A stretch of 64,000 nucleotides of DNA from Limonium bicolor. Its lineage: Eukaryota > Streptophyta > Magnoliopsida > Caryophyllales > Plumbaginaceae. The notes under the pieces are model-generated. The model did not search any database and was not told the origin of the DNA. It was given only the letters and a program-made list of their open reading frames with translations. Shown here piece after piece: positions 18,901 to 61,911 of the stretch; within the stretch, counting starts at the first letter, position 1, and every line of letters starts with the position of its first letter. Location: the NCBI GenBank assembly GCA_023374045.1, contig CM041779.1, forward strand, positions 142,674,294 through 142,738,293, read 5' to 3'. The translations under genes were made by a program, and so were the position numbers.

Positions 18901-21900
18901 TTTGCACTATCTTAAAGGAGCACCAGGACAAGGAATACTTTTTTAAAAAGGGGAACCCATTGACAGTCCAATGTTTCACTGATGCTGACTATGGTGGTTC
19001 CCTTGTTGATCGGCGATCCACTACTGGATATTGTGTGTTTCTAGGCGGTAATCTAGTGACATGGAGGAGCAAAAAGCAGAACGTGGTTGCAAGGTCATCT
19101 GCTGAATCGGAATTGAGAGCACTTGCTCATGGTCTATGCGAACTCTTATGGGTCCGTACCATTCTCACAGATTTGCGAATCAAATGGACATGCCCTTTGG
19201 AGTTGAGATGTGACAACAAATCTGCAATAAGCATAACTCACAATCCAGTTCAACATGATAAGACCAAGCACATTGAGATTGATCGGTTCTTCATCAAAGA
19301 AAAGGTGGAGGGAGGTCTGATCAACCTAAACTACATTCCTTCTGAAGACCAAGTTGCTGATGTGTTCACAAAACCTCTACATAGTCCTAGGTTCCATAGA
19401 CTTATCTCCAGGTTGGGAATGCAAGATATCTACAAACCCAACTTGAGGGGGGTGTTGTTAGACCTACTTAACTATGTAATGGGCCTTGGGCCTTATTCTT
19501 TTATCCTTTTTCCTGTACATACTTAATAAGGATATACTTGTAAATTAGGCTAGTTAGCTTATTCTTTAAGCCACCTGTGAGACGTGGTTCATCCCATCAT
19601 CCCACATCGTGAGTGAGCAAACAAAGGGGCACTTCCTTTGTTATAAAAGGAAGTGCTCACCTCACTTCTAATCTCATCCCAACAATTAGTAATTCTTCTG
19701 AATGCTAAATTGTAATCTCTTCTCTCTATATCTCTTAAAGTATAAATAAGAGAGTTCTGGTAGTGTCCGAGGAAGTAGGCAATATTGGCTGAACCTCGTA
19801 AAATTCCGGTGTCCCTTTTATAGCTTTATTTAGCAGCTTTTGGTGGGTAATTTTGTAGTGCTTTATTGTGCTAAGAAATTACAGTCAGGAAGTTCTGTCT
19901 AAGGAAGTGGTTCTTAAGCGGGACCATTGTGACCCTACCACGACCTGGGAATTTTCCTGTACGAAGTGATTTTCTAGTACAATAATTTACTCTCTTACCC
20001 AGTCGCTTCCGCAACAAGTGGTATCAGAGCCAAGGTTCTGTCTTAGTATGCTCTGTGGTTGCAGCTAGGCTGATCTTCCACATCAGAAAAGTGTTCCTTT
20101 GTTCAGTTGATACGTTGTAGCGCTGCTAGATGAAAATTGGAGAAAAAATGGAGGATGCCAAATTAAAGACCCCGGAGACAACGTCATCAACTTCCTCGTC
20201 ATCGATTTGGACAAGAAGGGTGATGACTAATGCTAAGTTTTCGGTGGAGACATTTGATGGTACGGGCCATTTTGGCATGTGGCAATGCGAAGTCCAAGAC
20301 GCTCTCTTTCAGCAAGGTCTTGACATCGCCATTGAAGAGACAAGACCGGAAGACATTCAAGAGAAGGAATGGGAGGCCATGAATCGAGCAGCTTGTGGTA
20401 CAATTCGCTCCTGCCTGTCGAGAGAACAAAAATATGCGTTCTCTAAAGAAAAATCTGCATGGAAATTGTGGAGGGCATTGGAGGAAAAATTCATGAAGAA
20501 GAGCAGTCAGAATAAGCTTTTTATGAAGAAAAGGTTATTCCGCTTTTCGTATGTTTCGGGGACCACAATGAATAACCACATCACCAGTTTCAATCAACTA
20601 GTAGCTGATTTGGTAAACCTGGATGTGACATTCAAGGATGAAGACTTGGCCTTAATGTTGCTGGGATCTCTTCCTGATGAGTATGAGTTTCTGGAAACAA
20701 CTCTACTTCATGGGAAGGACGATATCTCTTTGAAGGATGTCACTGCAGCACTGTACAGCCATGAATTGAGAAGAAAAGAAAAGAGGGCTGGTACTGATGA
20801 AGCAGCAGAAGCATTAGTGATGAGAGATCATTCTTCTGCTCAGAGAAAGGGGAAGAAAGGATGGTCAAAACCGAAAGCCAAGCTTGGCAAAGATGAATGC
20901 GCCCTTTGTCGAGAAAAGGGACATTGGAAGAAGGATTGTCCAAAACAGAAGAAAGGCAAGGCTGTTCAAGACGCATGTGTAGCTGAATACGACAGTGAAG
21001 GATCAGGACTATCATTGGTGGCATCGACTTCAAAAATTAACCAAGATGAGTGGATTTTGGATTCAGGAGCAACCTACCATATGTCACCCATTCGAGATTG
21101 GTTCTTTGATTACAAAGAACTAAAGGGTGGAACCGTTTTGATGGGAGACAATAGCCCATGCAAAACAATTGGTATAGGCTCAATCAAGTTGAAGAACCAT
21201 GAAGGATCAACCAGAGTTTTAAGAGAAGTTCGGCATGTTCCAAGCTTAACCAAAAATCTTATTTCTCTGGGACAATTGGAGTCGAAAGGATTCTCATGGG
21301 CCGCTAAAGATGGGGTTCTAAAGGTCGTTTCTGGACCACTGACGGTGATAAAAGGCACCAGAAGGAGCAATCTGTATTACTATGAGGGGAGTATAGTAGT
21401 AGGAACAGCAGCAGTTGTGTTGGCTCCCAAGGAGAACGGTGACTCTCAGTTGTGGCACATGAGACTGGGGCATGCCGGAGAGAAATCCTTACAGATTCTT
21501 GCAAAGCAGGGATTGCTGAAAGGCATGAAGGCTTGCAAGTTAAACTTTTGTGAGCATTGCGTTCTCGGGAAGCAAAAGAGGTTGAAGTTTGGCACTGCCA
21601 TCCATAATACGAAGGGTATTTTGGATTATGTCCATTCTGACGTTTGGGGACCCGCCAAGACACCTTCCTTGGGTGGGAACCGCTACTATGTGACCTTCGT
21701 GGATGATTTTTCTCGAAGAGTTTGGGTGTATGCCATGAAGACTAAGGATGAAGTGATGGGGATCTTCCTAACATGGAAGAAGACAGTCGAGACGCAAACA
21801 GATCGAAGGATCAAGTATCTCCGGACAGATAATGGGGGAGAGTACAAGAGTGATCCATTCTTGAAGGTTTGCAAAGACGCGGGAATTGTCCGACACTTCA

Positions 21901-24900
21901 CAGTCAGGGAAACACCGCAGCAGAATGGAGTGGCAGAGCGAATGAACCGAACATTGCTGGAGAAGGTTCGGTGCATGTTGTCAAATGCTGGGTTGGGCAG
22001 ACAATTTTGGGCTGAGACGGTAACATATTGCAGCCATATTGTGAACCGGTTACCGTCATCGGCTATTGGTGGAAAGACACCGCTTGAGGTATGGTCTGGA
22101 AAATCAGCTACTGATTATAGTTCTTTGCGAGTGTTTGGTTATGTGGCTTACTACCATGTGAAGGAATCAAAACTAGACCCAAGGGCAAAGAAGGCTCTAT
22201 TTATGGGGATTGCGTCTGGGGTAAAGGGATACCGGTTGTGGTGTCTAGAAGCAAAGAAGACAATCATTAGAAGAGATGTTACCTTTGATGAATCTGCGTT
22301 GTGGCAGAAGGTGACAGTAGACTCCATCCAGACAGAAAGAACTCAGAAGCAGCTGGAGAAAGCACCAAAGCAGGTGGAGTTCGAGAAGGAGATATTTGTA
22401 AACCCATTGGTTGGAGATGATAGTGACTCTCAAGGAATAGATGAGTCAAATGAGGAAGCTCCAACAGCAGAATCAGATCCGATTGCAGAAGGAAGACCTA
22501 GAAGAGAGATCCGCAAACCTGCTCGTTATGCGGATATGGTGGCTTATGCACTTCCAGTTGTAGATGAAGGGGTACCACCTACTTTCCGAGAAGCAAATCA
22601 AAACTCGGAAAGTAAGGAGTGGAAAGGTGCCATGGAAGAAGAAATGAATTCTCTTCACAAGAACAACACGTGGAAGTTGGCACAACTACCAAAGGGCAAG
22701 AAGGCAATTGGTTGCAAGTGGGTGTTTGCAAAGAAAGAAGGAACTTCAGGTGAAAACAGTGTCCGCTACAAGGCCAGGTTGGTGGCCAAATGGTACGCAC
22801 AGAAGGAGGGAATTGATTACCATGAGGTATTTTCTCCAGTAGTGAAACATTCCTCCATCAGAATTCTGTTGGCGTTAGTAGCTGAGCTGAATTTGGAATT
22901 AGCCCAACTTGATGTGAAGACCGCGTTCTTACATGGCGATCTGGAGGAAGAGATCTATATGACTCAACCAGAAGGATTTAAGGTTCGTGGTAAAGAAGAT
23001 TGGGTTTGTAGGTTGAACAAATCATTGTACGGGCTGAAGCAGTCTCCAAGGCAATGGTACAAACGATTTGATTTGTTTATGAAAGGGCAGAGGTACACAA
23101 GGAGCAAATATGACCATTGTGTATATTTGCGCAAGCTACATGATGGGTCTTACATCTACCTACTCTTGTACGTTGATGACATGCTAATTGCTTCAAAGAA
23201 TCAGTCAGAGATTGATAGATTGAAGGCTCAGTTAGCTCAAGAGTTTGAGATGAAAGACTTGGGAGAAGCCAAGAAGATTCTCGGGATGGAGATCAATAGG
23301 GACAGGAAGAATGGCAAGCTTTGTTTGTCTCAGAAGCAATATCTGAAGAAGGTGCTACAACGTTTTGGTATTAACGACAATACAAAACCTGTGAGTACCC
23401 CGCTTGCTCCTCATTTGAAGCTTAGTGCCCAATTATCTCCAAAGACTAAAGAAGATAGAGACCATATGGCTAGAGTCCCATATGCAGAAGCAGTTGGTAG
23501 CTTAATGTATGCCATGGTGTGTACAAGGCCCGACATTTCACAAGCAGTTGGAGTTGTGAGCAGATATATGCATGATCCTGGCAGAGATCATTGGCAAGCT
23601 GTGAAATGGATTTTACGATATATTCAAGGTACTGTGGATATTGGTCTGCTATTTGAGAAGGATGTTACAGGTGGTCCAAATGTGGTTGGATATTGTGATT
23701 CCGACTATGCTGGTGATATGGATAAGCGACGATCAACTACTGGTTACTTGTTTACTTTAGCCAAGGCACCAGTAAGTTGGAAATCTACCTTGCAGTCTAC
23801 AGTTGCTTTGTCTACGACTGAGGCGGAGTACATGGCTCTGACAGAGGCTGTGAAAGAAGGTATTTGGCTTCATGGGTTGCTTAAAGACTTGGGAGTTGGT
23901 CAGAGGCACATCACGGTGCACTGTGACAGTCAGAGTGCTATTCATTTAGCAAAGAATCAAGTCTATCATGCAAGGACGAAGCATATTGATGTTCGCTATC
24001 ACTTTGTGCGGGAGATACTCGAAGAAGGGGATATTCTTGTTCAGAAAATCCGGACGACTGAGAATCCTGCAGACATGATGACCAAGGTGGTGACCGCAGT
24101 CAAGTTCAAACATTGCTTGGACTTGACCAACATCCTACATATTAAAGTTGGCGCCTAAAGGCGCAATTGTAGACACTACCAAGTAGGTTTGTAAGAGAGT
24201 TTATTTTGGTTAGTGGGATAAACCAAGGTGGAGAATTGTGAGATGTGGTTCATCCCACCATCCCACATCGTGAGTGAGCAAACAAAGGGGCACTTCCTTT
24301 GTTATAAAAGGAAGTGCTCACCTCACTTCTAATCTCATCCCAACAATTAGTAATTCTTCTGAATGCTAAATTGTAATCTCTTCTCTCTATATCTCTTAAA
24401 GTATAAATAAGAGAGTTCTGGTAGTGTCCGAGGAAGTAGGCAATATTGGCTGAACCTCGTAAAATTCCGGTCCCTTTTATAGCTTTATTTAGCAGCTTTT
24501 GGTGGGTAATTTTGTAGTGCTTTATTGTGCTAAGAAATTACAGTCAGGAAGTTCTGTCTAAGGAAGTGGTTCTTAAGCGGGACCATTGTGACCCTACCAC
24601 GACCTGGGAATTTTCCTGTACGAAGTGATTTTCTAGTACAATAATTTACTCTCTTACCCAGTCGCTTCCGCAACACCACCTTTCCTTATAAATAAGGTTG
24701 TAATTCTTCTTGTTAATACACATCAATAAGAAGTATCTTCTAACTAACATGGTATCAGAGCCCAGGTTCAATCTTGGGTAATGCACCACTGTCTAATGGA
24801 TACCCGAATACAAACAGACTGTGTCACGATAAACCAAGAGATAGGATCGAGCCAGTACCGTAAAAATTGGACTGTGTCACGGAGAAGAGACCGGACCAGT

Positions 24901-33099: not shown

Positions 33100-36075
33100 C
33101 CTTATTCTTCTACATAATTTCGACAGCTTGATGGTCAAATAAGACCTACATACTTTGACATTAAGTAATACAACACATGGGAAGGTGAGTCACCATGTAT
33201 TAAGCCTTTTATAAACTTTAAAGGCAATTTTTATACTAGTTTTTGCTCTCAAAATCGGCCCCTATAGTGAGCCTTGTTTACTAGTCTCTCCAACTGATTT
33301 AGAAGGTCATTTTAACCCTATTTAATATTACCAATTCGTGGCATGCCAAAAACTACAAGGCAATTGCGTAAAACGCGTTTTCGTGACACCCGAAGGTGTG
33401 TTTTTGTGCTCTAAGGAAATTTTGGGAAACAAATTGTTTTTATAAGTTCCAAGTGTTTTTAAACACTTATTATAGTAAATAAACATGTATTAAGATATTA
33501 CATTGGGTTATATTGGGTTATATCAACCCGTGACATAATTTACGGGCCATCGGGACACACCCGGGCAAAAAGGAGCGCTAAGAAATACTCCTGAGGTTTT
33601 TGTTGAATTTTGAGAAACTACTTCGTGGGTTCTCTTTAGAATGATTAATAATGATGTTAGGAACTCTAAGAATTAATTTTATAGGAGTTCGTGCCACCTC
33701 GGCACTCCTCCGACTTTTCGTGCTTTAAGGAGCGGGCGTGAGCACTCCCGAGCATTTTGCGTATTTGACTGAATATAGCCTAGGGAATGTTTATATATTC
33801 ATATAATGAGTGTATGACCATTTGGTTTAAGTTTTAGAAGGTTATACAAGGTCATGCTTGATCACATGTTTCTAAGGCGTTTTAGCATTTATGGAGAAAC
33901 GACTATTTTTACGTAACGTTCTCATGCATGGGTTTGCATGCGTACGTGAGATGATTTATATTTGAATTATTTTCCATTAAATAATGGTTTAATAATATTA
34001 ATTAGATTTGGGGTATTTCAAATGGAGTTGCCAAACTCCATTCCCAACATCCAAGGAACACAAAAAGGATATAATTAAAATCCTAAACCCTTGGAATGCA
34101 CTAATTCATTGAAAGGCTTGAAACACCATAGTTAGGGTTTACCTTGTGGAGTTTTTAAGAGTGGTTTTAACCCTTGAATCAAGAAGGGGGTTCCACCACC
34201 ATTGTAGGGTAGAAAAAAAGCTCCAAAACAAGAAGAAAACAAGGTATCAAGGAGGGGCAAAATCGGCCAGCACAAAGGAGTGGAGAAAAAAATGAGTTTT
34301 TCTTTGAAATTTTTACCTTAATGGAAAGAGGGGACTCCAAGCTTCAAGAAAATGCCATCTTCTTCACAAATGGGGGTATACCCATGGAGGTCAACTATCT
34401 TCATTTGAGATTTTGAAAAGAGAGGATGCTAGAGCTTGGTGAGAGGATGAAGAATATGTATTTATTTTTGTGATTTAAGCTTTAATGAAGCTTGGGCAAG
34501 GCAAAGAAGCTTGAGTAGCCATGGAAGAATGGAGGCTGGCGCAAGGAAGAAGAAAGGGGGAAAGAAATCGGCTGGGAGGAGGAGGCCACCGTGAGAGAGG
34601 GAATGAAATGGGAAAGTGAGAGGAGAGAGAAAGCAAAAAGGGGGTATAAGTTGCTTTTTGACTTATTTTAATAGTTAGCTAGTTATGTGAGAGGGCTGAT
34701 TACTCTTATAAAACCGGCCCCATTAATAATACCAGCTGGGAGCGTTTTTCATCTTTTACAGAAAACGCTCGTTAATTTATCCGGTTTTAGCACTATTCAC
34801 TAACCGGACCCGTTTTTCTGATTTTTCTCGTTTCTATAATTTTAATGTTTCTTAAGCTTCCATTAATGCTTAATAATAGTTATTTGATGAACTATAATTT
34901 TTACAGGTTCGTTTGACCACTCAAAGTCACGTTTTCGGGTTTTCTCAAAAAATGTGTGTTAAAGCTTTATTAGCGTTTGTAATTCATTTTATGGATCTGT
35001 TTTCTTCGGGAATTGTTCCCGTATATTAATTAGGCATTATTAAGCCTTTGAAATTCATCTAAGTCCCTTGTCGAGGTCGTATTCCTCATGTGGCCACATA
35101 ACGCTCAATTTAGCGTTTTTTGCTTTTTAGGCGTTTTCTCATTTCTTTTGGATTTATTTTCTTTACCAAAATTCTTTAGACACTAATAGGCCCTCAAATA
35201 TCATGTTAGAGTAATTTAATCACCCTAATTAAGTTTGGGGTATTTCATCTATAGTGATTTTCCCCACTACTAATGTATTGTGGGTAAGGTACTATGATCT
35301 AATCTATGGGTAACTGACCTATATGGGGTGCACACACTTAAAGACATAGGGTGAGGTGGTATGGTTTATAGCGGACCTTTATTAGGTGTCCGGTTGCATG
35401 ATGGTTTACAGTGGCCTCTTATTGAGTGTCCGGTTTGCTTTGGTGAGCTTGCTTTGTAGCGGCCTCTTCTTGAGTGTCTGGTTTGCATTGGAGAACTTGG
35501 TTTGCAATGGCTCCTAGGTGGGTGTCCGATTTGCATAGGAAACAAGGTTTGGATGTGATTTGTTTAATTTGATTTGTTTATTCATAAGTATGTGGGAGTT
35601 GGTTATATGTCTTATCTAAATTGCTTTGTTCTAGCATGCCATGTGTTGCTTATTGTTATGCTTATCAAAGTGTTTTCCTAAGTTAAATGAGTTTTACAGG
35701 ATGAAGTAAGAATTACTCAGCTTTGCTGATGTTTTCTGGCATGTGCCATGTGACCCTTTTATGTGTTGTTTGAAATGACCACAAGTACAGGTGAAGATGA
35801 AGTTTCCCCTTGGTTTGGTGAAATGCATGAGTATGGGACACGATTTGAGACGACCACCTAGTACTTAGGAGTTTGGTATCTTGTGCAATGTTTTAGATTT
35901 TGTATAAACAGCGTTTGGTTTGTAATAATATGTGGCTGAGTTATAGTAAACCTTAGCATCCACAATGAATGTGGGTGTGACGGTAACACCCGACTTGCCG
36001 TGTATATTCCGCTGTGTAAGAGGTTTAATTAAAGAAATAGAAATAAAAAAATAAAGCTAAAAAGTGGGGTTTTAC
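33100..36075. other. LTR-derived non-coding DNA
   Basis: No coding frame is supported. The part at about 34,018-35,249 is a diverged direct copy of 39,515-40,753 in the solo LTR. Shared landmarks are TTTCAAATGGAG, ATACCCATGGAGGT, TTTTGGATTTATTTT and GGGGTATTTCA. The right edge GGGGTTTTACA at 36,065-36,075 abuts a MULE gene fragment and is the reverse complement of a TGTAAAACCCC LTR start, so a second LTR insertion probably ends here. The left edge may lie in the assembly gap. Confidence 0.55.
35365..35545. repeat. Short tandem repeat, about 55-bp unit, four copies
   Basis: The unit has the form GGTTTRYAGYGGMCTCTTATTGAGTGTCCGGTTTGC. Copies begin near 35,365, 35,402, 35,450 and 35,502 and become less alike towards the right. 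Confidence 0.65.
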
Positions 36076-36516
36076 ACCCTTCGTACACCTTTCTCATGCG
36101 TGCATACTCCTCCATGAAATGCACCTCTGTTTGACTCTTGACTACCTTGGACTAATACTTGATAGCCTTAACTACTTAGCCCGTCGTATGGATGAACCTC
36201 TTCACATTCAATTCAACATTGGTGTTGATGTGTCAGTGATAGAGAAGATGAGGCATGCGGGGAAAAACATCACGAAGAGCTTTTATAAGACCAAGCTCTT
36301 TGTCAGTCACAAACAATGACGACTCATGTCCTTCAGTCAACAATTCCCTCAAGTTCTTCTAGCTTAAGTGTACCATGCATCGTCTTCACTACATACAAAT
36401 GCATATGCAATGTTGAAATTCTTCCCAACAGAAGTCATTCAAACTATCTCCACAAGTGACATCTTATACACATTTGTCTTGTACATAGCATCAACATTGG
36501 CAACATATGGGAACAC

Positions 36517-39500
36517 TGTAACACCCCTACCGTTAATACTGTCATTACCGTCTAATCTCTTCGTACTTCCAGATTCACGCAGCGGTACATACTTACATAC
36601 GGTGGGTGATACAATGCCGTTAGTCACCCACGTGACTAACAAAGCTACTACTACTACATACAGCATCGGTCTGATGGACCGGAATTCCGAGTACTACACA
36701 TCACAATACATCCATTTACCAAGGAAATACTACAATGCTTCATTCAACACTTTACTCCTTTACATTACCATACAATACAATATACATAACCGAGTTTACT
36801 AAGTTCTTCATACTAATACAATACCTCTTTCAAATCCATTCATACTCATTCAGAGTCTACATCTACCCATTCCTCACGTCTACATACTTACAATGCACAA
36901 GGTGTACCCCCTTGGTACACTACTACTTCAAGACTACAAGTTCGATACTATTCTCTACAATCTACATTGTCACCGGTCTCTCATTGCGACCATGTCTGCT
37001 TCGGTACCTGCACACTAAAAACGTTCCCCCTAGGGGGTCAGCTTTCGCTGCATATGATAACCGCATACCCCGCGTACTAGTGAGGGTACGCCGACCACTT
37101 GGTCGAATACATGCGATTCATTTTATTCATACATACATGCATACATGCTTTCATACATAATACTACAATACTTTACGCAAGGAATACATACATACATTTC
37201 AATACATACAAGTAGTCCATACAAGCCAATTGATACTTACTTATCTTTCCTGAAATGCGCATACATAATACATACCCAATACATACACCATACATATTTC
37301 ATACATACACAATACATGTTAGCTCCTTTTTGTCCACCCGGGTTAATCGGGTGAAGATTACTCTTTTACTCGTTACACAATACTTACGCATACATACTCA
37401 TACTTACTTACTTACTTACTCAAGTCAAGTCGTCGGGACCTCCGGCCCGGGGACTACTCTGTCCCACCACCGGGATTTACTTGGTTCACCAATCCAGGAT
37501 GCTACCCATTTAAGGGGTTTGGGCCGTGGACCAGTTTAAGAACCAGGAATCGGATCCAACCTCTGTGTCTCCTCATCCTCACGCGTGGCCGAAACTATAT
37601 CGGACTTCTACTCATTCCAATTTATCCAATACTTACGTTAGGAGTTAGGTAGTTAAGAATTAGTAGAAGTCATTCATTCAAGCCACATACACAAATGCAT
37701 TACTCATATACACATCCATACAAAAATACAATACAATATGCAAGTGCACTACGAGATACAAATACACCTCATCATTATTCATACATTTCATGAATTATAC
37801 AAACTAGTGTTCAAGACAAATATCAGGAACAATGTGAACAAGCACAAGTAAGTGCAATATAGTCCGATTCATGCATTTATCTTATTAGGTGATCAAATAA
37901 GCACACAAATCGGGGTAACCAGATTAGGATACAGGGCATGAAGAAATCATACCTTTCACCGTTGATTACTCTATCGGGCGTTCCCTTGTTCCTTTGATTC
38001 ACTCTCGTTCCTCGAGTCTTATTCGAACCTCCGGCTACATGCCAAATGGTTCCATTAATCTAAGCATTACACTACACACATAGTTACTATTCCCATACTT
38101 ACCCCGTTATCCCGTTAATTCGGTTCAACTTAATATTCCTAGATTCACAATTTTCTCAAACTTGTTTTCTTACTCTTGTGCATACTTTCTTACCATTTCT
38201 ACTACCTATTAGATGTACTACTATATATACATATACATATGGGTATAGATATATACTTATACCTATGATTGCTATAATCATTTTTTTTTTGTTTACTCGA
38301 CCGACCTTACCCAGGGTCGGACCCAAGGTCGGTCGAAGTCAGTAAGTTTCGTTAAGGCAAAATTCCAGGCTCGACCGACCTGCAAGTCCGGTCCCAAGGT
38401 CGGTCCGTTCCAATGAGTTACTTACATGAAAATTTCAGGCCTGACTGACCTTGCAAGTCCGGTCCCAAGGTCGGTCCGTTCCAGTATTTCTGGGTTCGAG
38501 TTTTCTGGACTCGACCGACCTTGCCCAAGTTCGGTCCCAAGGTCGTCCATTCTAGTAGACCTCTGGCCTTCACAATTTATGACTCGACCGACCTTGTAAG
38601 TTCGGTCCCCAAGGTCGGTCGAAGTCAGAAACTTCCCTCTGTGTATTTTAAGGCGCGACCGACCTTGCGGGTTCGGTCCCGGTCGGTCCGGCCCAGTACT
38701 TCAGTTTTAGAATCTGTTTTCAGTTCTATAATTTGCCCATTGTTTCCCCATTGTTCCTACATTTATTCCCACATGTTTTAACATTAATTAAGCCTCCTAA
38801 TACACCTTAGTTCATCCATTAATCCCTTACCCATTCCTACTAATTTACACAATTTTTCCTCCTTTCCATTCCATACCCATAGCAGTTTTGGTTCCTTCTT
38901 GCTACAGATTTTGCTCTAACCTTTACCATTCAATACTCCTACCAATGCTACTCCGAGCATCCTCAATGCATTACTTTACCACTCTAGTTCTTCCCATTAC
39001 CTAAATCCTCTTCAATCTGTTTCCAACATGATTAATTACTCACAACAACTACCAGAACACCTAGTTATTGTCTAGGTTATTCCCTTCTTCCACATCTAAG
39101 TCCTATAATTTCCATATAAATTGGGCAGAGGTTCCCCTAAATTCTCACTTTGCTCACATACCATTTCAACTCACATTCAATCCCAATCTCCATATCCATT
39201 CACACATCATTACTCACACTACAACACACAAATTTCCTGCACACATACATACATTACCCATGGTTTTCCCAAGCTTTTAAGCAACATTTACAAGTTTCAA
39301 AACAGCTACATTACCTTACTCATCATACTTCAACATACTTACTACTCATAACCTCATTCATTACTCATTTTAAGCATTTAAAATCTGTTACAATACCACA
39401 CAAAACTAGCTAAAGATAAGAACATTTACCTTGTTATTTCTAGTTTTCCTTTCTTTCTTCTCCCTTTCTCTTTCCTTCTTCTTTCTTCTCCTTTCTTTCC

Positions 39501-51406: not shown

Positions 51407-53159
51407 TAGTCTTGTCCTCGTCTAGAAATATAGAGAAAACCTTAAAGTTTGACCCATTATAAAATTAATTTGGTCAGGGGACCTGTCTAGGGTCCACTCC
51501 ACATTTATGGAATTGTTTGGCCTGACTGCAACCAGGGCCTTCTTGATGATTTTCGGGCTTTGTGCTAAAGTCCACTTATAAAATTAAATTAATTTAAAAT
51601 AAAAATTGCTAAATTAAAATATATAAAATGAGACCACTTATAACATTCTATTTAAATTAAATTTAGACATTATATAATTTTTTCATGACAAACTCTAAAG
51701 AGAGTAAATAAAAATTGGGCCCCCAAATATAGGGAGCCCTGTTCCATCAGGCTGTTTGCACAACCAAGTAGCCGGCCCTCACTACAACCTATTCAATTTT
51801 TAGTCTATTATCTTCGCAGCCAATAGCGGACTCAAAAATTTTGTTAGGGGGGGACAATTTTTTTTACACTATTGTTCTTTAAAACATTATGTTATTTTGT
51901 ATTTTTCAAAAATTTATAAGAGTATTTTACAAATTTTCAAAAGTTTCAAGGGAGCGGTGACCCCGACCCGCCCCTGTTTCCAGCATTGGACAATTTTGGT
52001 TTTAATTGTATCTGAGTTCATTTTTAGAGATTGCTTGCATGAGTTAGCGTTTTTGTTTGAGATTTCATGGAGGGGATGAAGAGGATGCAACAGGAATGAT
52101 GCAACTTGCAACAGTAACTCATAAAGCCTTTGATACAATCAGATTGAATAGGAGTGTGTGAAATAACAAAAAAAAAAGTGACTAATAAGGATTTTAGTGT
52201 GAGTCTTTTAATTTTAGTTGGGTTAAACTTAAGCTTCGGGTCGAAGCTTTCATTTAAGGGGGAGAGATTGAAATACCATAAATAAGTATAATATTAGTTT
52301 AGTATTTTGTTTAGGTTGGTTGCCTACGTATTACTAAATTTCATCAAATTCAAAATCTATCATTTATTTTTATTTTATATTTTAGAGATGGTCTATATTA
52401 GATATTTTCCACAAAGGGATTTTATGCAGGTTTAATTAATCACCAATTGGTTTTAAACTCTTTATATTTTTGTTTTTGTTGTATTTTTCCTATCAAATTG
52501 GTATAAAACATGATTATACTAAGGGAGTTTTAGTGATATTTTATAATTTCTAAATCTTTGTATATAATCAGATTTTATCTTTTATTATTATTTATTTTGT
52601 ACAAAATCATCTCTAACAATTTTTATTTTCGAGTTACCCAACCCTAATTATTTTCCTACATATACCCCTTTCTTCTTATTGATTACGACGCCAACTTCAG
52701 CTTCCTAAAACTCAACCCTTACTCTGAAGTATTGTCTGCCGCCGCCGCACCAAATTCCTTTTTTCTTTACTTTCGTCACTTTGTTCTTAGCCTCATACGA
52801 CTACTACCCTCTTGTGTGGTATCCTTCCCTGTTAAATCAACAAACAGTTCCAGTCTTTTTTTTGTACGTACTGTACGGTTTCTCTTTTTATTCTCTCGTG
52901 AACATAAATGGCGATGATATCTTCATACTTCTACTTTCGTATTTTGACTTCTTTTCCATCCTTTGAAAGTGGTATAGTGATTCACTTTATCAGTAGCCAA
53001 ATCATACTGTACAAACGATTCATAATTGTTGTACTTTCTATATTATCTATTTATCTTTTATCTCACATATAATATTTTATTGTTTTTTTCTACCTTATAA
53101 GACGTGGTTATGGAATTGTTAGTATGAGAAAGATAAATTCAAATATATGTGTTGGAAAC
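51407..53159. other. AT-rich intergenic DNA
   Basis: No gene is supported. At 51,825-51,975 a piece with GCGGACTCAAAAATTTTG and GACCCCGACCCGCCCCTG looks like an old transposon remnant. The reading frames near 52,730-52,970 are short, T-rich and unconvincing. Confidence 0.45.
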
Positions 53160-53204
53160 TGAACTCGTTCGTTCAGTCGAGTTTTCACTTCGCTCAGTCG
53201 GAAA
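53160..53204 (+). repeat. Left terminal inverted repeat of the MULE
   Basis: Contains GTTCAGTCGAGTTTTCACTT followed by CGCTCAGTCGGAAA. It pairs with the reverse complement of 61,866-61,911. Confidence 0.8.
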
Positions 53205-53509
53205 TTTAAAAAACTTTACCATTTTGTTGCCCTTACTCTTAAATTCTCCTATATATACACCTTTACCCTCGATTATCCTCCACAAAATTTCAAAATCTCA
53301 AAACTCTCTATCTCTCTAGAATTCTCTCTGACTTCTCTCTAGAAGCGGTAACCGGAGCGGGAGCGGGGAGCAGGAGGAAAGCCGGTGCTGAAGTCATCAT
53401 TTCTGCTAGTTTGATCTGCAAAATCAGGTTCTTTTTTGTCATAATTTACAGTTTTTTAGCGTAGGAAAGTAGCAAATTTAGCAAGAAAAACAAGACGAAA
53501 TCGGAATCG

Positions 53510-53700
53510 GGGGAGGGGGGCGCGCGCTGGCGCGGGACGACGGAGGGCGCGCGGGACGCACGACGGCGCGCGGGCGTCGGGGACCAAGACGGCGCGCAGG
53601 CGCCGGGAGAAAGAGAGGACGCGGCCCGGGGAGGAAGAGAGGGCGCGGGCGCCGGGGAGGAAGAGGGGCGCGGGCGCCAGCTGCGGGAACGCTCGGGGCT
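53510..53700 (+). promoter_or_regulatory. GC-rich block upstream of the mobile-domain gene
   Basis: Dense GGCGCGCGGGCG and GGGCGCGGGCGCC units occur in an otherwise AT-rich region, about 200 bases before the start codon. A related block lies inverted at 61,215-61,430 before the transposase. It may be a promoter, 5' leader or intron element. Confidence 0.5.
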
Positions 53701-53901
53701 CGTTTTTTGCTGTTGTTATATAATTGGTCGTTTTTTACATTGTATACCTCTATTATGCGTGTTTTAATCAGTTCCAGGATTTGTATGAATTTATTTTTGA
53801 CGTTGAACTACTGAGATGCATGTATGACCGGTATTGAGTAACCTCGACCGGTCTTGACTAACTGTAAAAATAGTATGACTAAATTCTACGGTAAACAACA
53901 G

Positions 53902-56635
53902 ATGGCGGGAGGAAAGGGCAAGGGTTTGCTTGGTAGGTTCGGTCTGGGTAAGGGTAAGTCGATTTCTGACCGAGGCGAGAGCTCATCACACCCTCGTGTG
54001 ACCGGGCCTGATGCTGCTGCTACAGAGAGGAGGCGTACGCAGTACGCTACAGCTTCGTCGAGGAAGCGTAGGGAGCTTGAGTTTCTGCGAGCCCGTGAGG
54101 AGAGGTTGCGGGCGGAGTATGAGCTGGATCAGGGGGGGGGAGGAGGAGGAGGAGGATGCGGAGGAGGAGGAGCAGAGGGAGGAGCAGGAGGTGGACCAGC
54201 TACATGGTGTGGATCTGGACTCATTGATCGGCGATGGGACGCTGGTCGTGAGGTCTGATAGTCCTGCTTGGCCTACTCCTCCACAGAGGAGAACCGGAGA
54301 CGCACGTCATGGCGAGGCTGACGCTGATGACGAGGATATGGATGAGCCGGGTGCTGAGCATGAGGGCACACAGGTGCGCCGTCGTCGCCGGTCCCCAGTA
54401 CATGGTCCGGCAGAGGGGCTGGCGCAGATGCCGGCTGCTGATGCTTGGCTGCTTGGGCAGACTCCAGTGCCCGGAGGCCCTCAGGATACGAGTTTGATCC
54501 CGAGTTTCGGTGGTCACGTCGCGCTAGACGTGTGGCGAGGAGTGGTATGTTTCCCGTCTGGTAATAGATTCCATAAAATTTTAGATTGTTTAGGAAATGG
54601 TTAACATAGTGTGAACTCAATTATAAATATTCAACAGGAGAAGGGATGTCTTAGCTTCAAGCCTAAGACGAAGTATTTGGAGGCGTGGACTCTGAGTACA
54701 TTGAGGCACCCAGAGTCTCTAGCAGCGGTCGAGGATAGCGGACTTGCGCATCTTGTCGACATAGCGCATGGTTGTTTTGACCTCGCGCTCCTCTCAGCGT
54801 TCGTGGAGAGATGGCAGCCTGACACGAACTCCTTTCACATGCCATTCGGAGAGATGATTACTCTCCATGACGTCTACCACATTTTGGGTATCCCCATCAC
54901 CGGCATGGCGATTTCGTACCAGCACGAGGATGGCGCCCGCCTCGGTTTAGCGGCCCCACCGTTACAGGTTCTCATCCCCCACTTCGTACGGCTCTTTGGC
55001 GCGGCGGACCAGCAGGAGCTGATAAACTGTAGGTTCCTGGAGAAGAGTCAGGTACGTTACCGAGCTCTTCATGATACTTGTGGCGGTCCATACTCTACCC
55101 CCTTCAGGAGACGACGGCCTTCCTCTGGTGGCTGGTGTCCCACTCATTGATCATCGACAAGGGCGGGGATCGTGTTATGCCCTCGTCCTACTGGCCCATC
55201 CGTGACCCTAGTAGGGTCCACTTGTATGCGTGGGGGACCGGGACACTGGCATACCTGTACCGACAGCTCGGCATCGCTTCCCGGGCGGATACACGTCAGC
55301 TGGCTGGTTGCCTGACGTTGTTTCAGGTGAGAACTTGATTGCGAGCTCACGACTTAAGTATTGTAAAGTTACACCTTGACTATCTTGGCTAATGTTTTCG
55401 GATGATCACCGCAGTGCTGGATCTACGAGTACTTCCCCATGTTCAGACCGGAGCCCCTTTCAGACTGGGATGGTTGCTCCCCGACGGCGGCGAGGTGGCC
55501 TCGTTACACGAGGAATTTGATGGATGATGAGAGGCTACGTTTCGTGAGGGGACGGCTGGACACGATGTCCTCTACTGAGGTACGAGTTGCTTAGCGATTG
55601 TAGTAATAAAAAGTTGACGTTTAACGTATCGTCAAACATTGTTTCTCATTTAATTTGTTAATTGTTTTCCATTAAATGAAACATAGGTTACTTGGGTGCC
55701 ATTTGAGGCAGAGGGTGCCCTCGTATCACAGGCGCGCTCCCGGTACTATGGCACCATACAGTTCTTGGATATTGCTGAGCCGTATATGCCGGAGCGGTGT
55801 CTGCGCCAGTTTGGATACGTGCAGACTATCCCCCCTCAGCCTATCAGACCCGACAGCCATTATCGTCCCAGACATGGGAAGACGTACCTTGCTACGTACG
55901 ACTACGGGACAGCCGTGTGGGACAACACGACAGGGCCCAGCAGGTGGAGGTTTCCTCTGACGCGTGCGCCGATGGCATGGGCCGTGGCCCCGGATTACAT
56001 CCGGTGGTTCCAGCGCCTTTCTCATGTTCAGGTGCGTCCACTAGGAGCGGACGGTGGGCCCAGTACACGACGAGAGGATCAGCTCCAGGTAAATAATTTG
56101 TCTTGTTAAATTTTTTTTGTTGTTTGTAATTGTTTTTAAATACTAACTTCACATTTATACCTTACTGCAGTATTGGGATGAGACAGCGCCGCTTATCATG
56201 AGTCTCGCACCGGAGAACAACCCGGGCTGGCCCACGGGTTTCCCCCCCTGGGCGGCTGATACGCTGGAGATGGCCTTTGAGTACTGCCGGCTTAATGTCC
56301 CGACCACCCCTGATTCGCCCACACGTCACAGGAACCCTAACCAGCCTCGTGCTGGCATGGAGTGGTACATCGCGGGGCGTCGCACCAGAGGCCTTAGGCC
56401 TAGAGGGGAGGGTATGCACCGTAGGCACATGGAGCAGGCGCGTCGTTATGGGGGTGATGGTGGGCGCGGTGATGATGGGAGGGGACCGGGTGATGGGAGG
56501 GGAGGGCGTGGTGATGGCAGGGGAGGACATGCTGGTGGTGGTTCTGGGGCTGGGGCGGGTGAGTATGGTGGGGGTGGGTATGGTGGTGGTGGGTATGGTA
56601 GGGGTGGGTATAGTGGTGGTGGGTTTGGATATTAG
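53902..56635 (+). CDS. Plant mobile domain (PMD) protein, six exons, one frameshift in a G run
   Basis: Exons are 53,902-54,544, 54,638-55,051, 55,108-55,326, 55,415-55,579, 55,687-56,088 and 56,171-56,635. All later exons are multiples of three in phase 0. Exon 1 has a basic N-terminus (MAGGKGKGLLGRFGLGKGK), a coiled Arg/Glu-rich stretch and a Glu-rich stretch. The PMD core follows: SLIPSFGGHVALDVWRG, HPESLAAVEDSGLAHL, MPFGEMITLHDVYHILGIP, LIIDKGGDRV and WRFPLTRAPMAWA. The C-terminus is Gly/Arg-rich (GGGYGGGGYGRGG), suggesting RNA binding. PMD proteins such as Arabidopsis MAIN/MAIL1 act in silencing and genome stability, and PMD genes often ride on transposons. One extra base in the nine-G run at 54,132-54,140 breaks the frame, and eight Gs would keep it open. 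Confidence 0.85.
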
Positions 56636-56759
56636 TAGACTTATTAGTTTATGTTGTTTTTAAACATTCTGTATTGATGTTTAAACTTGTGGTGTTGTTG
56701 TAATTTTAATTTATGTTTATTTGGTTTTTAAATAATTCATTCTTGTTTATGTCATTAGG

Positions 56760-57212
56760 ATGTCAATTCCCTTTGCAATTCACGTGAACCATTACACCGC
56801 ACTCAATGAATACGGGGCACGGTTCCAACGTGCTCCGGGATGGGCAGTGATCAATACAGAAATTAGAACTCCGAGAAGTGTTAACAACCTAACAGCTTCA
56901 TTAAATCAAATTGTCAGATCACATTTTGATAATCAGCAACTCAACGTCTTTTCCATTGTCTACCTTAGGATGGACCAAGATCTGTACAACGACTCTATCG
57001 TCGATATACTGACCGATGCGGACGTACGCATGATGTTGCAGAACTACTTAGACCTTGGAGAAATAATGGAAAGAGTTAGGATTCTTGTGAAGTATGAAGA
57101 TGATTCAGATTTCGAAGACCCAGATGTAATACGAAGCAGGGCTGAGGCGGACCGTAGGGAACACAATTCACGCTGCAGGGCTAGTACGAGGGGACGACCG
57201 CCTCCTGCTTGA
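56760..57212 (+). CDS. Unrecognised 150-residue protein in the MULE
   Basis: An open frame from ATG 56,760 begins MSIPFAIHVNHYTALNEYGA and ends TRGRPPPA. It is 125 bases downstream of the PMD stop on the same strand, with a possible splice acceptor (CATTAG) just before the start. It has a compact N-terminal region, predicted helix-strand character in the middle (LNVFSIVYLRMDQD), an acidic patch (KYEDDSDFEDPD) and an Arg-rich tail. I do not recognise the family. Its position suggests an accessory transposon protein, perhaps equivalent to small N-terminal or second ORFs seen in other MULEs, but this is a guess. Confidence 0.6.
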   Translation: MSIPFAIHVNHYTALNEYGARFQRAPGWAVINTEIRTPRSVNNLTASLNQIVRSHFDNQQLNVFSIVYLRMDQDLYNDSIVDILTDADVRMMLQNYLDLGEIMERVRILVKYEDDSDFEDPDVIRSRAEADRREHNSRCRASTRGRPPPA

Positions 57213-58103
57213 TCAGTGCAACCACATTTGGCTTTCATGTACTGGTAGTCATCAGAATTGTTATTTGTTTTAAGATTTAAAATGATGTGTGTGTGGAATA
57301 AGTTGTAACATTATGAGAAATGACGTGTGAACAATGTTGATTGGAAATGAAACTCTAAAATAGAATCGCTTTTGAAGTCTTGAAAATATGTTTCAAATAT
57401 GTGTGCAATTACATTTAATTAGAAAAAAAACATTTTTTGAGCAATCTCCGACGACAAACCAATCTTGCTTTTGAAGTGCTGAAACGTAATCTCACTGATT
57501 TTGGCTGCTAAAAGTCCTTTCTTTGACAAGGTGTTAACGAACTCCCAAATTCTAGTATTAGCTGTGTGACAAGAAACCAATCTTAATTCCTTAACTTTAG
57601 TTGTTCACTAATGGGATAAAAGCATCCACTCAACATGAAGTCACTATACGTATTCACTATCAGTATGGTATTCAACATGATGTTATGAACGAATGTATAC
57701 TTGAAAAGTTACCCTTGGTAGACCAAGTAAGGATCAGCATCTTGTCCAGTGGTTAGAAACACAGATGGGCCAAAATTCGATCGTTAGTGACGGATGAAAT
57801 ATTCTACAACTCTTTTTTTGGTAAATTAGGTGTCAAATGTGCTTCTTAAGATCAATGCCATCTTTGGTGGTCTAAATTCTTTGTTGGCCGTTGAGTCGCT
57901 AACAGCAGTAGTATTAGAACGCATTGTATCTACGATGAGTTTGCTTTTATTAGATAAAGTATAATCCACTGTATCAACATGAGACACTACAATATTCAAA
58001 AAATTAAGTGTCCTTTTTTAATACTTTCATCTTGCAAAACATTACAACAACCTTCTTGAATATATTAATGGCATACAAGAATTCAACAAAATTTTTATAA
58101 ACT
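57213..58103. other. Convergent 3' region in the centre of the MULE
   Basis: No gene is seen. The rightward and leftward transcription units end facing each other here, so both 3' UTRs should lie in this AT-rich stretch. Confidence 0.5.
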
Positions 58104-59149
58104 CTAATCTTCTATAATCAACTGTCCTGATCCATCAGTTGGGGGAAACAATTTGTACCACTCTGCATTGCGCGGTAAGAACGGCTCAATATAAGCTGTA
58201 ATTGAGGGCTCATGCCAACGTCGCCACATCGGATTCAAGATTGGGACTGGGACAATTTTCGACTGTTTGGAGTCTAATGAAATGACACTGCCCAGCGACA
58301 CATGCAATAGTGACCTCTGCTGGACGACATAGCCCCCGCCCGATCACGTAGCAGCGTGAGCGACCAACCCACTAGCCCTACCATCGTGTGCTTTTGAAAA
58401 ACTGATAAGCGTAATGTGGTATACAGTGCACAAGATGACACCAAGATCTAGAATTTCAATCCAGTGTGGCGTTGGTGCGAAAGAGTCTCCAAACCAATTC
58501 AGTCGAAAGCACTGTCTATCGTACCAAATTCGCTCAACTTTACTTAACCACCAGTCTCTTCTATCCACCAGCTCATCCAAGCATGCACGTCTAACCTGTT
58601 TCCATTGGCTTTCATCGTTGTACACGGCATCAGCAATAGCTCGAAACCCACAGTTTCCATCACCCACTATCTCCCTGTAACCTATAATAAAATTCGCTAA
58701 TTGCGGATCGAGGTCACTCCAATATTGCGAGAATTTCCAGGGGCTCCAGTATGTCGGATATGGTGCATGTTGTTGAGGTGGATTGTGTTGCATTGTCGGT
58801 CCTTCTCCAGTTTGACTCATTCCCTCAGATGGCCAACGCTGTGATTGACTGTGTTGCATTGACGGCCCACGATCACTTGTACTTTCGGGGGCTGTCGGGC
58901 GTCGCTGAGACTGCGAACGTCGTAGGCCCGGGCCACGGTTTCCAAGACCTAAATGCTCGTGCTCGGACTTGTCCCTAGTGTTTGGCCTCTTCTTTTTTTT
59001 GGTAGTGGGCCTACCCTTAGGCACCTTCACCTCTGGTGGCTGTAAACCAGTGTGATCATCCTCGGGCTCCCATATTGGCTTCCACGCGTTGAACGCTTGT
59101 TCGATCGTCCTAGGATCATACCGCTGAGACAGATCATCATACCATAAAC
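58104..59149 (-). pseudogene. OTU-like cysteine protease domain, frame-shifted continuation of the transposase
   Basis: Directly after the transposase stop, the minus-strand sequence stays open in another frame: CVGLWYDDLSQRYDPRTIEQ, then KKKKRP and a Ser/Gln-rich linker, then an OTU domain. The OTU signature is VGDGNCGFRAIADAVYNDES, where Asp-Gly-Asn-Cys supplies the catalytic cysteine. WWLSKVERIWYDRQ and VILCTVYHITLISFSKAHDG follow. A TGA at 58,344-58,346 interrupts the frame, which then continues to a natural stop at 58,104 (RNAEWYKLFPPTDGSGQLII). OTU proteases usually cleave ubiquitin chains. There is no convincing ATG, so this was probably the C-terminal part of the transposase protein before the lesions. 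Confidence 0.78.
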
Positions 59150-61672
59150 CTACACATGAGAGTTGTTCCTCTGTGCTATACGACTCATCGTATGTTTGGC
59201 GTTGTGCTTCAAATTCTTGTGTGCGTCATATCTGAGTGTTCGCCAGAAGATATGCACTTCTTCAACTGGTATATTCCCGACTTGAATGTACTGAAACATA
59301 CGAAACGCGCACGGTAATCCCATGGTCGAAGTAAACGCACAAACATCTTCGCACGATGTTGTGTGGTCAATATCGCAACTCCCGCTTCTCAGCTGATCCT
59401 GGAGTATTTCCAAACATTTGAGGCTCACTTGATTGACCAGAAATAAAAATGGGACTTGCTGGTCTTCCGAAACCCTTCTGTCAATGGAGAACTCGAAGTC
59501 TTGTTTAATGTGGAAATGTTGCCCTTCGACGAATCTATGTATGCTGTCGAAGCATGTGTCTAGAGATCCGGTGGATGTATGAAGCCAACACTTTAGAGCT
59601 GAGTGGGCGCTCTCCGCCCTATAGATTGGAAGTCAATTAATAGCAGATAAATGGGAAACATACCAATACAAACAACAGAACATGTTGACAATTGAAGATA
59701 AGCTAACCTGTTGGTAGATGTGTTGCCGAAATGCATGAATCTCTTAACCCATGCCTCACAAAATTTCTCACGCTGACATAGCCATGTGTTGTTCAAGTAC
59801 ACAACGAAAGGATTCTTGGCGCCGTAAGAGTGTACTAATTTTCCGTACTGTTCATCGTACTTCGCAATAGTTGAGGCGTAAACTAGTCGCTTCCACCGGT
59901 GCACTACTGAATCGACTCTCTCACGCTCAACATGCATTATCTTGAGCGCATTGGCAGCCACGTTCTTGCATATATGCCAACGACATAGAAGATGTGGTAC
60001 AGAAGGATATACCACTGAAAGTGCTTTCACTAGCGCCTTTTCATTGTCAGTGACAAACACATTTGGAGGATAGATCAACACCTTCTTCAGCTGATTAAGC
60101 ATCCATGTGTATGCAGACTCATCCTCTCTGACCGCAAAACAGAACGCTATACAGAAGTTCTTGCCGCACGACGTGACTCCGATGAACTCCACTAGAGGCA
60201 CCTTGTACATGTTCGTCTTGTAAGTGCTATCAATGAGCACTACATAAGGAAACATCTTAACGAGCGTCAGCGAAAAAGGGTGCGCAAACAAGACAAGACC
60301 CAGCCTAGATGGATTCCCTGCAAAATGGACATTTAATTAGAACTAACATTTAAAGTGATTAGCATACAAATAAACCAACACTAAACAGATGTGCCGACAC
60401 TTACTTGCATCTTTCTCGGACCACCAACTATAATTACGTTCATCTAGCGAGTGCATGAAGGACGCTACATCTGTACGTCCGCCACGATCTTCTTTTCTGA
60501 ATTTCGAAACTAGGTTATGAATCGATGTCTTGTCTGCAGTACTTTCAGGGTTCTTGTCATGCAAATGGGCCCACATCTGCCTAGGCGCAACACCACTCCT
60601 GTACAAACTTTTCATGCTTGCCCTTTCGTCGACACTAAAGCGAGGCCGGACGAAGTGAGATTGTGGGTTACTGGCTAATGCGTGGTTGTGCGTCGGGACC
60701 ATCACCAAGATAGACCAGCCCGTCTGCCCCCCACCCCTGATGCTTAGGCGGAAGGGGCAGTTGCATTTCTTCGTGGCACGCCGTGGCCTTTGACTCGACG
60801 ATGATGATTCTCCTGTGCTAACCCGTGGCCTATGCTTGCCGTACCTCTCACACGTTAGTATTACTTCACCGTCGTCTCGCTTAGTCTGTCTGATTAGATA
60901 AATATTATTAGCCTCTCCGGTGCGAAACGCATAACTAACCGCCTCCTCCTGATCGCCAAAGATTTGGCTAGTATTAAATACATGACTTGTGTCTACGTTC
61001 GCATCCTCGAATTCATCATCGTTATCACCCTAAGCAGAAAAACGTCGTTATTCATGAAGTGCTACTCGTAAACCCTAATACTACGTACTTTAGAATAAAT
61101 CACACATAAGCCATCAAAATAATCAACAAAGTATATCATCGTAAAGTACACGAAAAGACAAACGCAACGGCGCAAACGGATCGAAAAACGGAGCAATAAC
61201 GAAGAAGATACAGCGATTTGAAAAACGGGCACCGGCGCAGGCGCCGACCTAAAGACGCCGGCGCCGGCGTCCGCAGCAAGGGAGGCGCGCAGGCGCGCGT
61301 TTGTAGGGGTGGGCGCGGGCGCGCGGGTGGAGAGGCGCGGGCGCGCGTAAGGGGTGGGCGCGGGCGCCCGGTGGCCTGGGACGGCGCTGGCGCGCGCTTA
61401 AAGAGGTGGGCGCGGGCGCCCAGTAGTCTGCTATTCCCGATGTCTTTTTTTGCTTTTTTCGTTCAGTTTTGTATATATTCTAGCTACATTTGTACATAAA
61501 TTACTAAAATAACAACAAAAAGTACCTCAGATTGAGCTCCTCGTGAATACTCCTCGCTCCTAACATCATCTGCATTCTCGTCTTGTGTTTCTGGAACACC
61601 ACCTTCAGCATTTCCTCCATCTTTTTTACTCTTACCGAACAGTTTTTTCTTCAAACTTCCGAAAGAAACCAT
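59150..61672 (-). CDS. FAR1-type/MULE transposase, four exons, 616 residues
   Basis: Exons are 61,672-61,526, 61,029-60,405, 60,317-59,708 and 59,618-59,150. The junctions are GT-AG and phases 0, 1 and 2 fit, ending in TAG. The N-terminus (MVSFGSLKKKLFGKSKKDGG) is basic and possibly nuclear. A FAR1-like zinc region has Cys109, Cys138/Cys140 and His163/His165 (KKCNCPFRL...THNHAL). The transposase core has Asp287 (VVLIDSTYKTNM), Asp348 (VFVTDNEKALVKAL), a CRWHICKN motif and Glu463 (STNRAESAHSALK). A SWIM-like region (CEDVCAFTSTMGLPCAF) follows, with Phe where the last His is usual. The 616-residue product may act alone. In the intact ancestor it probably continued into the OTU domain. Confidence 0.87.
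61215..61430 (-). promoter_or_regulatory. GC-rich block in intron 1 of the transposase gene
   Basis: GGGCGCGGGCGCGCGGG and GCGCGGGCGCCC units recur, mirroring the block at 53,510-53,700 near the other end. It lies between transposase exons 1 and 2. Confidence 0.5.
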
Positions 61673-61865
61673 TTCCTCTCTTTATCTCTCTAACTTTATC
61701 TCTCTAACTTCTCTCTAACTTTAGGATTTCTGAATTTGAATATGATTTCATATCATATTCAATTCCTTTATATAATGAAATTTGGGGTCACCTTGTAATA
61801 TATCATAAATTGTGGGTAAATATAGAAATATTTGAAAATTATTATAGTAGGGGCAAAATAGTCTT

Positions 61866-61911
61866 TTTCTGACTGAGCGAAGTGAAAACCCGACTGAGCG
61901 TAGTGAACTCA
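61866..61911 (-). repeat. Right terminal inverted repeat of the MULE
   Basis: CTGACTGAGCGAAGTGAAAA and CGACTGAGCG are the reverse complement of the left-end motifs. Confidence 0.8.

What the first reader, a model, noticed from the sequence alone, without database searches (positions are those of the whole stretch)
53160..61911. A multi-gene MULE combining transposase, OTU protease and plant mobile domain
One pair of terminal inverted repeats encloses a FAR1-type/MULE transposase with an OTU cysteine protease domain behind it, a six-exon plant mobile domain gene, and an unknown 150-residue protein. Kaonashi-type MULEs that carry ULP1 (SUMO) proteases are known. A deubiquitinase-like module joined to the transposase, together with a mobile-domain gene, suggests an anti-silencing kit: the OTU domain could remove ubiquitin marks and the PMD protein could interfere with host MAIN/MAIL1-type silencing. 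The functional part is inference. I do not recall this exact combination as a named system.
Basis: partly seen in the sequence, partly recalled or inferred. Interest (0 to 1): 0.88.

Follow-up and report, generated by a model that had tools for sequence, protein, structure and literature searches.

The report
Plant jumping gene with accessory kit
This is one slightly broken copy of a many-copy plant DNA transposon (a Mutator-like element) that carries, besides its cutting enzyme fused to a ubiquitin-protease-like domain, a plant-mobile-domain gene and a small protein, and relatives of the last two also sit beside a quite different transposon enzyme in the same genome, so they look like a reusable accessory kit rather than chance passengers.

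Summary
Window 53159-61910 is a Mutator-like element (MULE): a PMD gene and a 150-residue ORF (p150) on one strand, a convergent FAR1-MULE transposase with an OTU-like C-terminal domain on the other. Of 20 fetched copies, 9 are complete with the same order; 16 of 24 end pairs show an 8-bp (not 9-bp) target duplication. The window copy shows none and is frameshifted in PMD and transposase-OTU. Another copy reads transposase through the OTU Cys box in one frame. FAR1-MULE-OTU fusions are common in plants (22 of 41 relatives); PMD antisense to MULE transposases, and the anti-silencing idea, are in print. New here: p150 is related to the N-terminal domain of MuDR-type transposases and to stand-alone ORFs at two other PMD-bearing loci of this genome, one of them (L050) a TIR-bounded MULE with the same layout but a MuDR-like transposase. 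Between such loci p150-like genes (dN/dS 0.17) and PMD genes (0.08) show purifying selection; within the window's own family the test was inconclusive. So PMD+p150 looks like a selected accessory pair that accompanies different transposases. Anti-silencing and deubiquitinase activity remain inference. New variant of a known kind.

The parts
53159..53204 (+). left terminal inverted repeat (border set by other copies)
61866..61910 (-). right terminal inverted repeat; ends ..TAGTGAACTC here, ..TAGTGACCCTC in most other copies examined
53902..54544 (+). PMD gene exon 1, frameshifted in this copy
54638..56635 (+). PMD gene exons 2-6 (54638-55051, 55108-55326, 55415-55579, 55687-56088, 56171-56635), open, AG/GT borders
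56760..57212 (+). p150: 150-residue ORF related to MuDR-type transposase N-terminal domains and to stand-alone ORFs in L049 and L050
57678..58039 (.). spacer between the convergent genes; multiplied to different extents in other copies
58104..58790 (-). OTU-like domain, C-terminal part out of frame in this copy
58791..59210 (-). linker between transposase and OTU
59215..61670 (-). FAR1-MULE transposase, exons about 61527-61670, 60406-61029, 59713-60318, 59215-59631
61235..61419 (.). G+C-rich repeats, 26-base spacing, near the right end; one related copy near the left end at 53560-53595

Best explanation
A damaged copy of a recently amplified MULE family that codes for its own transposase. Shown: one mobile unit with inverted repeats, 8-bp target duplications in other copies, PMD and p150 on one strand and a convergent FAR1-MULE-OTU gene on the other. 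Inferred mechanism: the FAR1 domain binds element DNA and the MULE domain cuts and pastes it; the OTU domain, carried by the transposase, removes ubiquitin either from the transposase itself (sparing it from degradation) or from chromatin at the element; PMD and p150 are trans-acting helpers kept by selection for the element's own spread, PMD most likely by competing with or joining host MAIN/MAIL-type PMD complexes, p150 by binding transposase-type N-terminal domains. Relatives of PMD and p150 accompany a MuDR-like transposase in the same genome, so they act as an accessory pair that is not tied to one transposase type.
For: Same order in 9 complete copies of 20 fetched; 17 of 40 listed left ends, the window's included, have a listed right end within 24 kb in the same orientation; 8-bp duplications in 16 of 24 pairs, 15 by script and one by eye. 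One frame of 342 residues from the transposase's last exon through the OTU Cys box in L015. OTU. p150 relatives: L049 (tblastn 1.1e-15, z 28.8) and L050 (z 21.1); N-terminal domains L048 (z 4.0 and 7.6 for two pieces) and L051 (z 6.0). Layout of L050: PMD(+), p150-like(+), MULE+SWIM transposase(-) between ~200-bp inverted repeats. Selection: dN/dS 0.170 (bootstrap 0.079-0.320) for p150-like L049/L050 and 0.082 (0.029-0.131) for PMD L050/L051.
Against: Within the window's family no clear purifying selection: shared-variant N:S over expectation is PMD 1.49, p150 0.42 (6 to 6), transposase 0.73, linker 1.91, OTU 1.12 with two shared stops. The selection results come from other MULE loci, not from this family. 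The element's PMD is nearer to PMDs of other eudicots (40%) than to those of L047/L048 (28-33%), so PMD and p150 need not have moved together. L047 and L051 show no stand-alone p150. p150 gives no tblastn hit to L050 at E 0.01. No activity was measured; the OTU is subthreshold in Pfam and broken in the window copy.
Confidence: 0.55

Rival explanations
1. PMD and p150 are transposition helpers in the manner of maize mudrB, with no role in silencing; the OTU domain only stabilises the transposase.
For: p150 is related to transposase N-terminal domains, which points to transposition rather than silencing; PMC6446971 (passages) describes mudrB as an unknown protein apparently needed for integration.
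Against: Host PMD proteins MAIN and MAIL1 act in silencing (PMC5418596, passages), which is why a silencing role for PMD is expected; no direct test either way.
Confidence: 0.35
2. PMD and p150 are captured cargo without function, amplified by hitch-hiking, as in gene fragments carried by Pack-MULEs.
For: Within-family selection test inconclusive and, for PMD, even above expectation; each of the copies inspected has frameshifts somewhere in the transposase-OTU last exon region or elsewhere.
Against: dN/dS far below 1 for p150-like and PMD genes between other MULE loci; full-length multi-exon gene with consistent splice borders and phase; same pair beside another transposase (L050).
Confidence: 0.09
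3. Chance neighbours: genes that happen to lie between two unrelated inverted repeats.
For: The window copy itself has no target duplication and an odd right end.
Against: Nine complete copies elsewhere share the whole unit, about 92-98% identical over the main pieces, several with 8-bp duplications.
Confidence: 0.01

Closest known systems
Plant MULE groups with PMD, often antisense (Dupeyron 2019, PMC6446971 Table 1, groups 42 and 45-50; group 42 MULE-Solanaceae_1: 'unknown ORF and PMD (antisens)')
   Same: MULE transposase with a PMD gene on the other strand, in group 42 also an unknown ORF
   Different: listed with SWIM/CCHC and 9-10 bp duplications, no FAR1 N-terminus (apart from a Phytophthora subgroup) and no OTU; here FAR1, OTU and 8 bp
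Jittery group, dicot/monocot subgroup (same table, group 36)
   Same: FAR1 in the N-terminus; 8-bp duplication listed
   Different: one ORF and no PMD listed; no OTU listed
FAR1-MULE-OTU proteins of eudicots (for example P0121 Perilla, P0123 Mercurialis, P0127 Lotus)
   Same: same domain order over 84-95% of the query, Cys box
   Different: 26-28% identity; genomic context not available here
PMD genes captured by MULEs in grasses and Amborella (Ikeda 2017, PMC5418596)
   Same: PMD in a MULE; anti-silencing already proposed
   Different: there described as fusion proteins with the transposase; here a separate convergent gene
Kaonashi/KIU (ULP1) MULEs and VANDAL/VANC (PMC13317346, passages)
   Same: MULE with a ubiquitin-like-protein protease domain or an anti-silencing protein as extra gene
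   Different: ULP1, not OTU; non-TIR elements; VANC unrelated by any test made here
MuDR-6_HM of Hydra (PMC6446971 Table 1, group 14)
   Same: MULE listed with an ovarian tumour domain
   Different: animal; no PMD listed

Membership tests
Mutator/MULE superfamily | MULE transposase domain | tested here: met
   PF10551 4e-24
Mutator/MULE superfamily | inverted repeats and 8-11 bp target duplication | tested here: met
   in other copies 8 bp; not in the window copy
Jittery-type group 36 | FAR1 N-terminus | tested here: met
   PF03101 7.8e-7
Jittery-type group 36 | 8-bp duplication | tested here: met
Jittery-type group 36 | SWIM or CCHC in the C-terminus | tested here: inconclusive
   no Pfam SWIM or CCHC in the exon pieces scanned
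Jittery-type group 36 | one ORF | tested here: not met
   three genes
Jittery-type group 36 | place in a transposase tree | not tested
   no Jittery or MuDR reference sequences at hand
MULEs with antisense PMD | PMD gene convergent with transposase in one TIR unit | tested here: met
OTU cysteine protease | Cys box and His motif in one open frame | tested here: met
   in L021 and L022, not in the window copy
OTU cysteine protease | Pfam OTU/C65 above cut-off | tested here: not met
   E 0.025-0.22, below cut-off; PDB matches at 1.4e-4 and 2.4e-6
OTU cysteine protease | cleaves ubiquitin | not testable with these tools
   needs an enzyme assay
Kaonashi/KIU MULE | ULP1 domain | tested here: not met
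   no ULP1 (Peptidase_C48) in the Pfam tables
Pack-MULE | gene fragments without transposase | tested here: not met
   transposase in the same unit
PMD-C clade (MAIN/MAIL-like) | groups with genic MAIN/MAIL in a tree | tested here: inconclusive
   quick tree without Arabidopsis references; element on a long branch in an open fork

The most novel reading that the evidence does not exclude
PMD+p150 is an old, portable counter-defence pair that has been combined with two distinct MULE transposase types (MuDR-like and FAR1-OTU). p150 supplies in trans, or blocks in rival elements, the N-terminal domain of MuDR-type transposases; PMD jams the host MAIN/MAIL silencing complex; and the OTU domain carried by the transposase strips ubiquitin from chromatin at the element.
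Probability: 0.2. Interest if true: 0.82.

Novelty: new variant of a known kind. Interest (0 to 1): 0.55.

Why it matters
What PMD proteins do for MULEs is an open question, with anti-silencing as a published guess. Here PMD genes of MULE-type loci in one genome show strong purifying selection and recur with a second small protein whose relationship (transposase N-terminal domain) is now visible, beside two transposase types. That makes the question testable: two defined accessory proteins and a transposase with a predicted deubiquitinase can be assayed singly and together. It may also explain the 'unknown ORF' listed beside PMD in another MULE group.

Tried and rejected
Chance neighbours: rejected. 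9-bp duplication: 8 bp fits. p150 by database search: 15 candidates, none at E 0.01; nothing convincing among the 161 proteins held; Pfam only a sub-threshold HincII match; single-sequence AlphaFold model poor, pLDDT 49, so no fold search was run. A PB1-like (beta-grasp) fold for p150 is my reading of its pattern from recall, not a result. p150 against the N-terminal pieces of L047: no similarity (z -0.8 and -0.3). Selection within the family: inconclusive or contrary. Idea that FAR1 sites mark the ends: the motif CACGCGC (recalled) is absent from the element and from the rest of the window. PMD tree: quick tree of 98 rows; element in an open fork with multi-copy eudicot PMDs, apart from L047/L048, long branch, so its clade is not settled. 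PDB search with a PMD: no PMD structure. Papers: nothing on these terms in PMC8599713 or PMC7156037. Library searches for a MULE with PMD and OTU; the listings show none, but subscription papers and Repbase are not held, so absence from print is not shown. For the OTU alignment ten stretches were cut and seven were used with one from L022; P0123, P0127 and P0136 were left out, and P0123 and P0136 show no clear His motif as annotated.
Full report
What is there. The window lies in a 2.92-Gb genome held as G000. Between inverted repeats at 53159 and 61910 lie a PMD gene and a 150-residue ORF on the + strand and a transposase gene on the - strand. PMD exons 2-6 have AG/GT borders and whole-codon lengths; exon 1 is frameshifted in this copy. 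The transposase has FAR1 and MULE domains. Its last exon runs on into an OTU-like domain: in the window copy a 1-bp deletion separates the two and a further frameshift takes the His part out of frame, but in L015 one frame of 342 residues runs from the last transposase exon through the OTU Cys box, and in L021 and L022 the OTU frame includes the SHFIRLQT motif.

A mobile unit. Searches (left end; right end) each list 40 places, the window's own and others at 94-98% identity, out of 1015 and 1884 candidates, so counts are lower bounds. I fetched 20 copies, those with the best left ends after the window's own. Nine are complete with both ends and all three genes in the same order: L011, L015, L016, L017, L018, L019, L022, L023, L027 (L027 with a small deletion; L017 and L023 share flanks). 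L009, L021, L025 and L028 have the three genes and run off the 10-kb stretch before the right end. L010 has both ends but lacks the last p150 codons, the spacer and the OTU C-terminal part. L012 (with an insertion) has PMD and p150 and runs off within spacer repeats; L024 has PMD and p150 and then other sequence. L014 and L020 lack most of PMD, p150 and the OTU. L013 and L026 show only the left end. 17 of the 40 listed left ends, the window's included, have a listed right end within 24 kb in the same orientation.

Target duplications. In 24 end pairs, window included, an 8-bp duplication matches 8 of 8 in ten and 7 of 8 in five by script (shifts of one base allowed), and 8 of 8 in C3:164.7M by eye. 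The rest: L020 6, C878 5, L011, L019 and L027 4, L022 3, window 2 of 8; C2021 could not be scored. L023 repeats L017, L020 repeats L014, and L018 and L024 may share flanks. The window copy has lost its duplication or recombined at its right end.

OTU. Pfam models stay below cut-off. phmmer against the PDB with the L021 stretch gives OTUD5 at 1.4e-4; a profile of eight stretches gives OTUD5 2.4e-6, OTUD3 8.5e-5 and VCPIP1 2.2e-4. D31, C34 and H152 are invariant in that alignment, for which three of ten cut stretches were left out. Among 41 relatives of the whole protein, all with the MULE domain, 22 carry the Cys box by a broad pattern, and several of the rest end before or inside it. So the fusion is common in plants; one relative is filed under an arbuscular mycorrhizal fungus (P0160).

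PMD. 300 relatives reach E 0.001 among 7993 scored candidates, 120 listed; the top ones are 40-41% identical over about three quarters of the query, from Mercurialis, Euphorbia, Linum, Chenopodium and others. The own genome has many other PMD loci (165 matches among 117 scored of 9466 candidates). PMD in MULEs, often antisense, is tabulated in Dupeyron 2019 (PMC6446971; passages, section 6 part 1). Ikeda 2017 (PMC5418596, passages) reports PMD-C captured twice by MULEs and already speculates about anti-silencing; a 2021 review repeats it (PMC8616336, passages).

p150. Searches by sequence alone found nothing. Two PMD loci of other types were read and three more, all chosen. L047 has a transposase with MULE and SWIM domains (DBD_Tnp_Mut below cut-off) and a PMD on the same strand; its N-terminus does not match p150. 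In L048 p150 matches two pieces of an N-terminal region convergent with PMD (z 4.0 and 7.6). The relative L051 carries that N-terminus in reading pieces just before DBD_Tnp_Mut, MULE and SWIM domains, so this is a transposase N-terminal domain. L049 has a stand-alone p150-like ORF (tblastn 1.1e-15, z 28.8) among four p150-superfamily ORFs in a row; L050 has one (z 21.1, 300 shuffles each), although tblastn with p150 itself missed it at E 0.01; L049 and L050 ORFs are 75% identical. L050 has ~200-bp inverted repeats, 95.5% identical, around PMD(+), p150-like(+) and a convergent transposase with MULE and SWIM domains similar to that of L047: the layout of the window element with another transposase. 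No duplication is evident at its borders, while L051 shows a 10-base one by eye. L047 and L051 show no stand-alone p150. In L049 the p150-like ORF and PMD are on opposite strands. None of the element's transposase or OTU pieces matched L047-L051 at E 0.01, while p150 and PMD pieces did.

Selection. p150-like L049/L050: dN/dS 0.170, bootstrap 0.079-0.320, 114 codons; PMD L050/L051: 0.082, bootstrap 0.029-0.131, 234 codons, with dS near saturation. In one search the recent pair L049/L048 gave 1.52 for PMD and two further pairs were saturated. Within the window's family (18 copies after dropping L020 and L023 as duplicates, plus the window; 13-16 sequences per stretch) there is no clear constraint: shared-variant N:S over expectation PMD 1.49, p150 0.42, transposase 0.73, linker 1.91, OTU 1.12. 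The recent burst thus says nothing for function; the older comparisons, in other MULE loci, do.

Function. Shown: structure, past mobility, fusion, homologies, selection on PMD and p150-like genes in other MULE-type loci. Inferred: that the OTU cleaves ubiquitin and where; that PMD acts on MAIN/MAIL-type silencing; what p150 binds. My odds: about 0.95 for the structural statement, 0.8 for an accessory function of PMD and p150, 0.35 for anti-silencing by PMD, 0.5 for an active OTU in intact copies.

Novelty. MULE with antisense PMD: known. FAR1-MULE-OTU: common among database proteins. The combination, with p150 placed and the same accessory pair beside a MuDR-like transposase, was not found in the searches of open papers that I made. 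I call it a new variant of a known kind.

Noticed in passing
L049 790-4058: Four p150-superfamily ORFs in a row beside a PMD gene, with the tandem repeats at 4243-6338 between them and PMD: accessory genes multiplied within one locus?
   Followed up: partly
window 36065-36528: Relic of another FAR1-type MULE transposase (TP3 piece 54 and 36% identical, E 1.5e-20; also matched by FAR1-MULE-OTU proteins), no PMD, p150 or OTU match near it.
   Followed up: partly
window 6581-11287: Ty3/gypsy-type retrotransposon pieces: capsid-like, protease, RT, RNase H, integrase.
   Followed up: no
window 20130-24155: Single 1342-residue Ty1/copia-type polyprotein frame.
   Followed up: no
G000:C4:142601526-142611102 (about 126 kb upstream of the window copy): A further copy of the same family with both ends and a 7 of 8 duplication on the same chromosome.
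   Followed up: partly
P0160: A FAR1-MULE-OTU protein filed under the mycorrhizal fungus Ambispora gerdemannii: transfer or contamination.
   Followed up: no
window 53560-53595 and 61235-61419: G+C-rich repeats near both ends of the element, inside or upstream of the first exons of the two convergent genes.
   Followed up: partly
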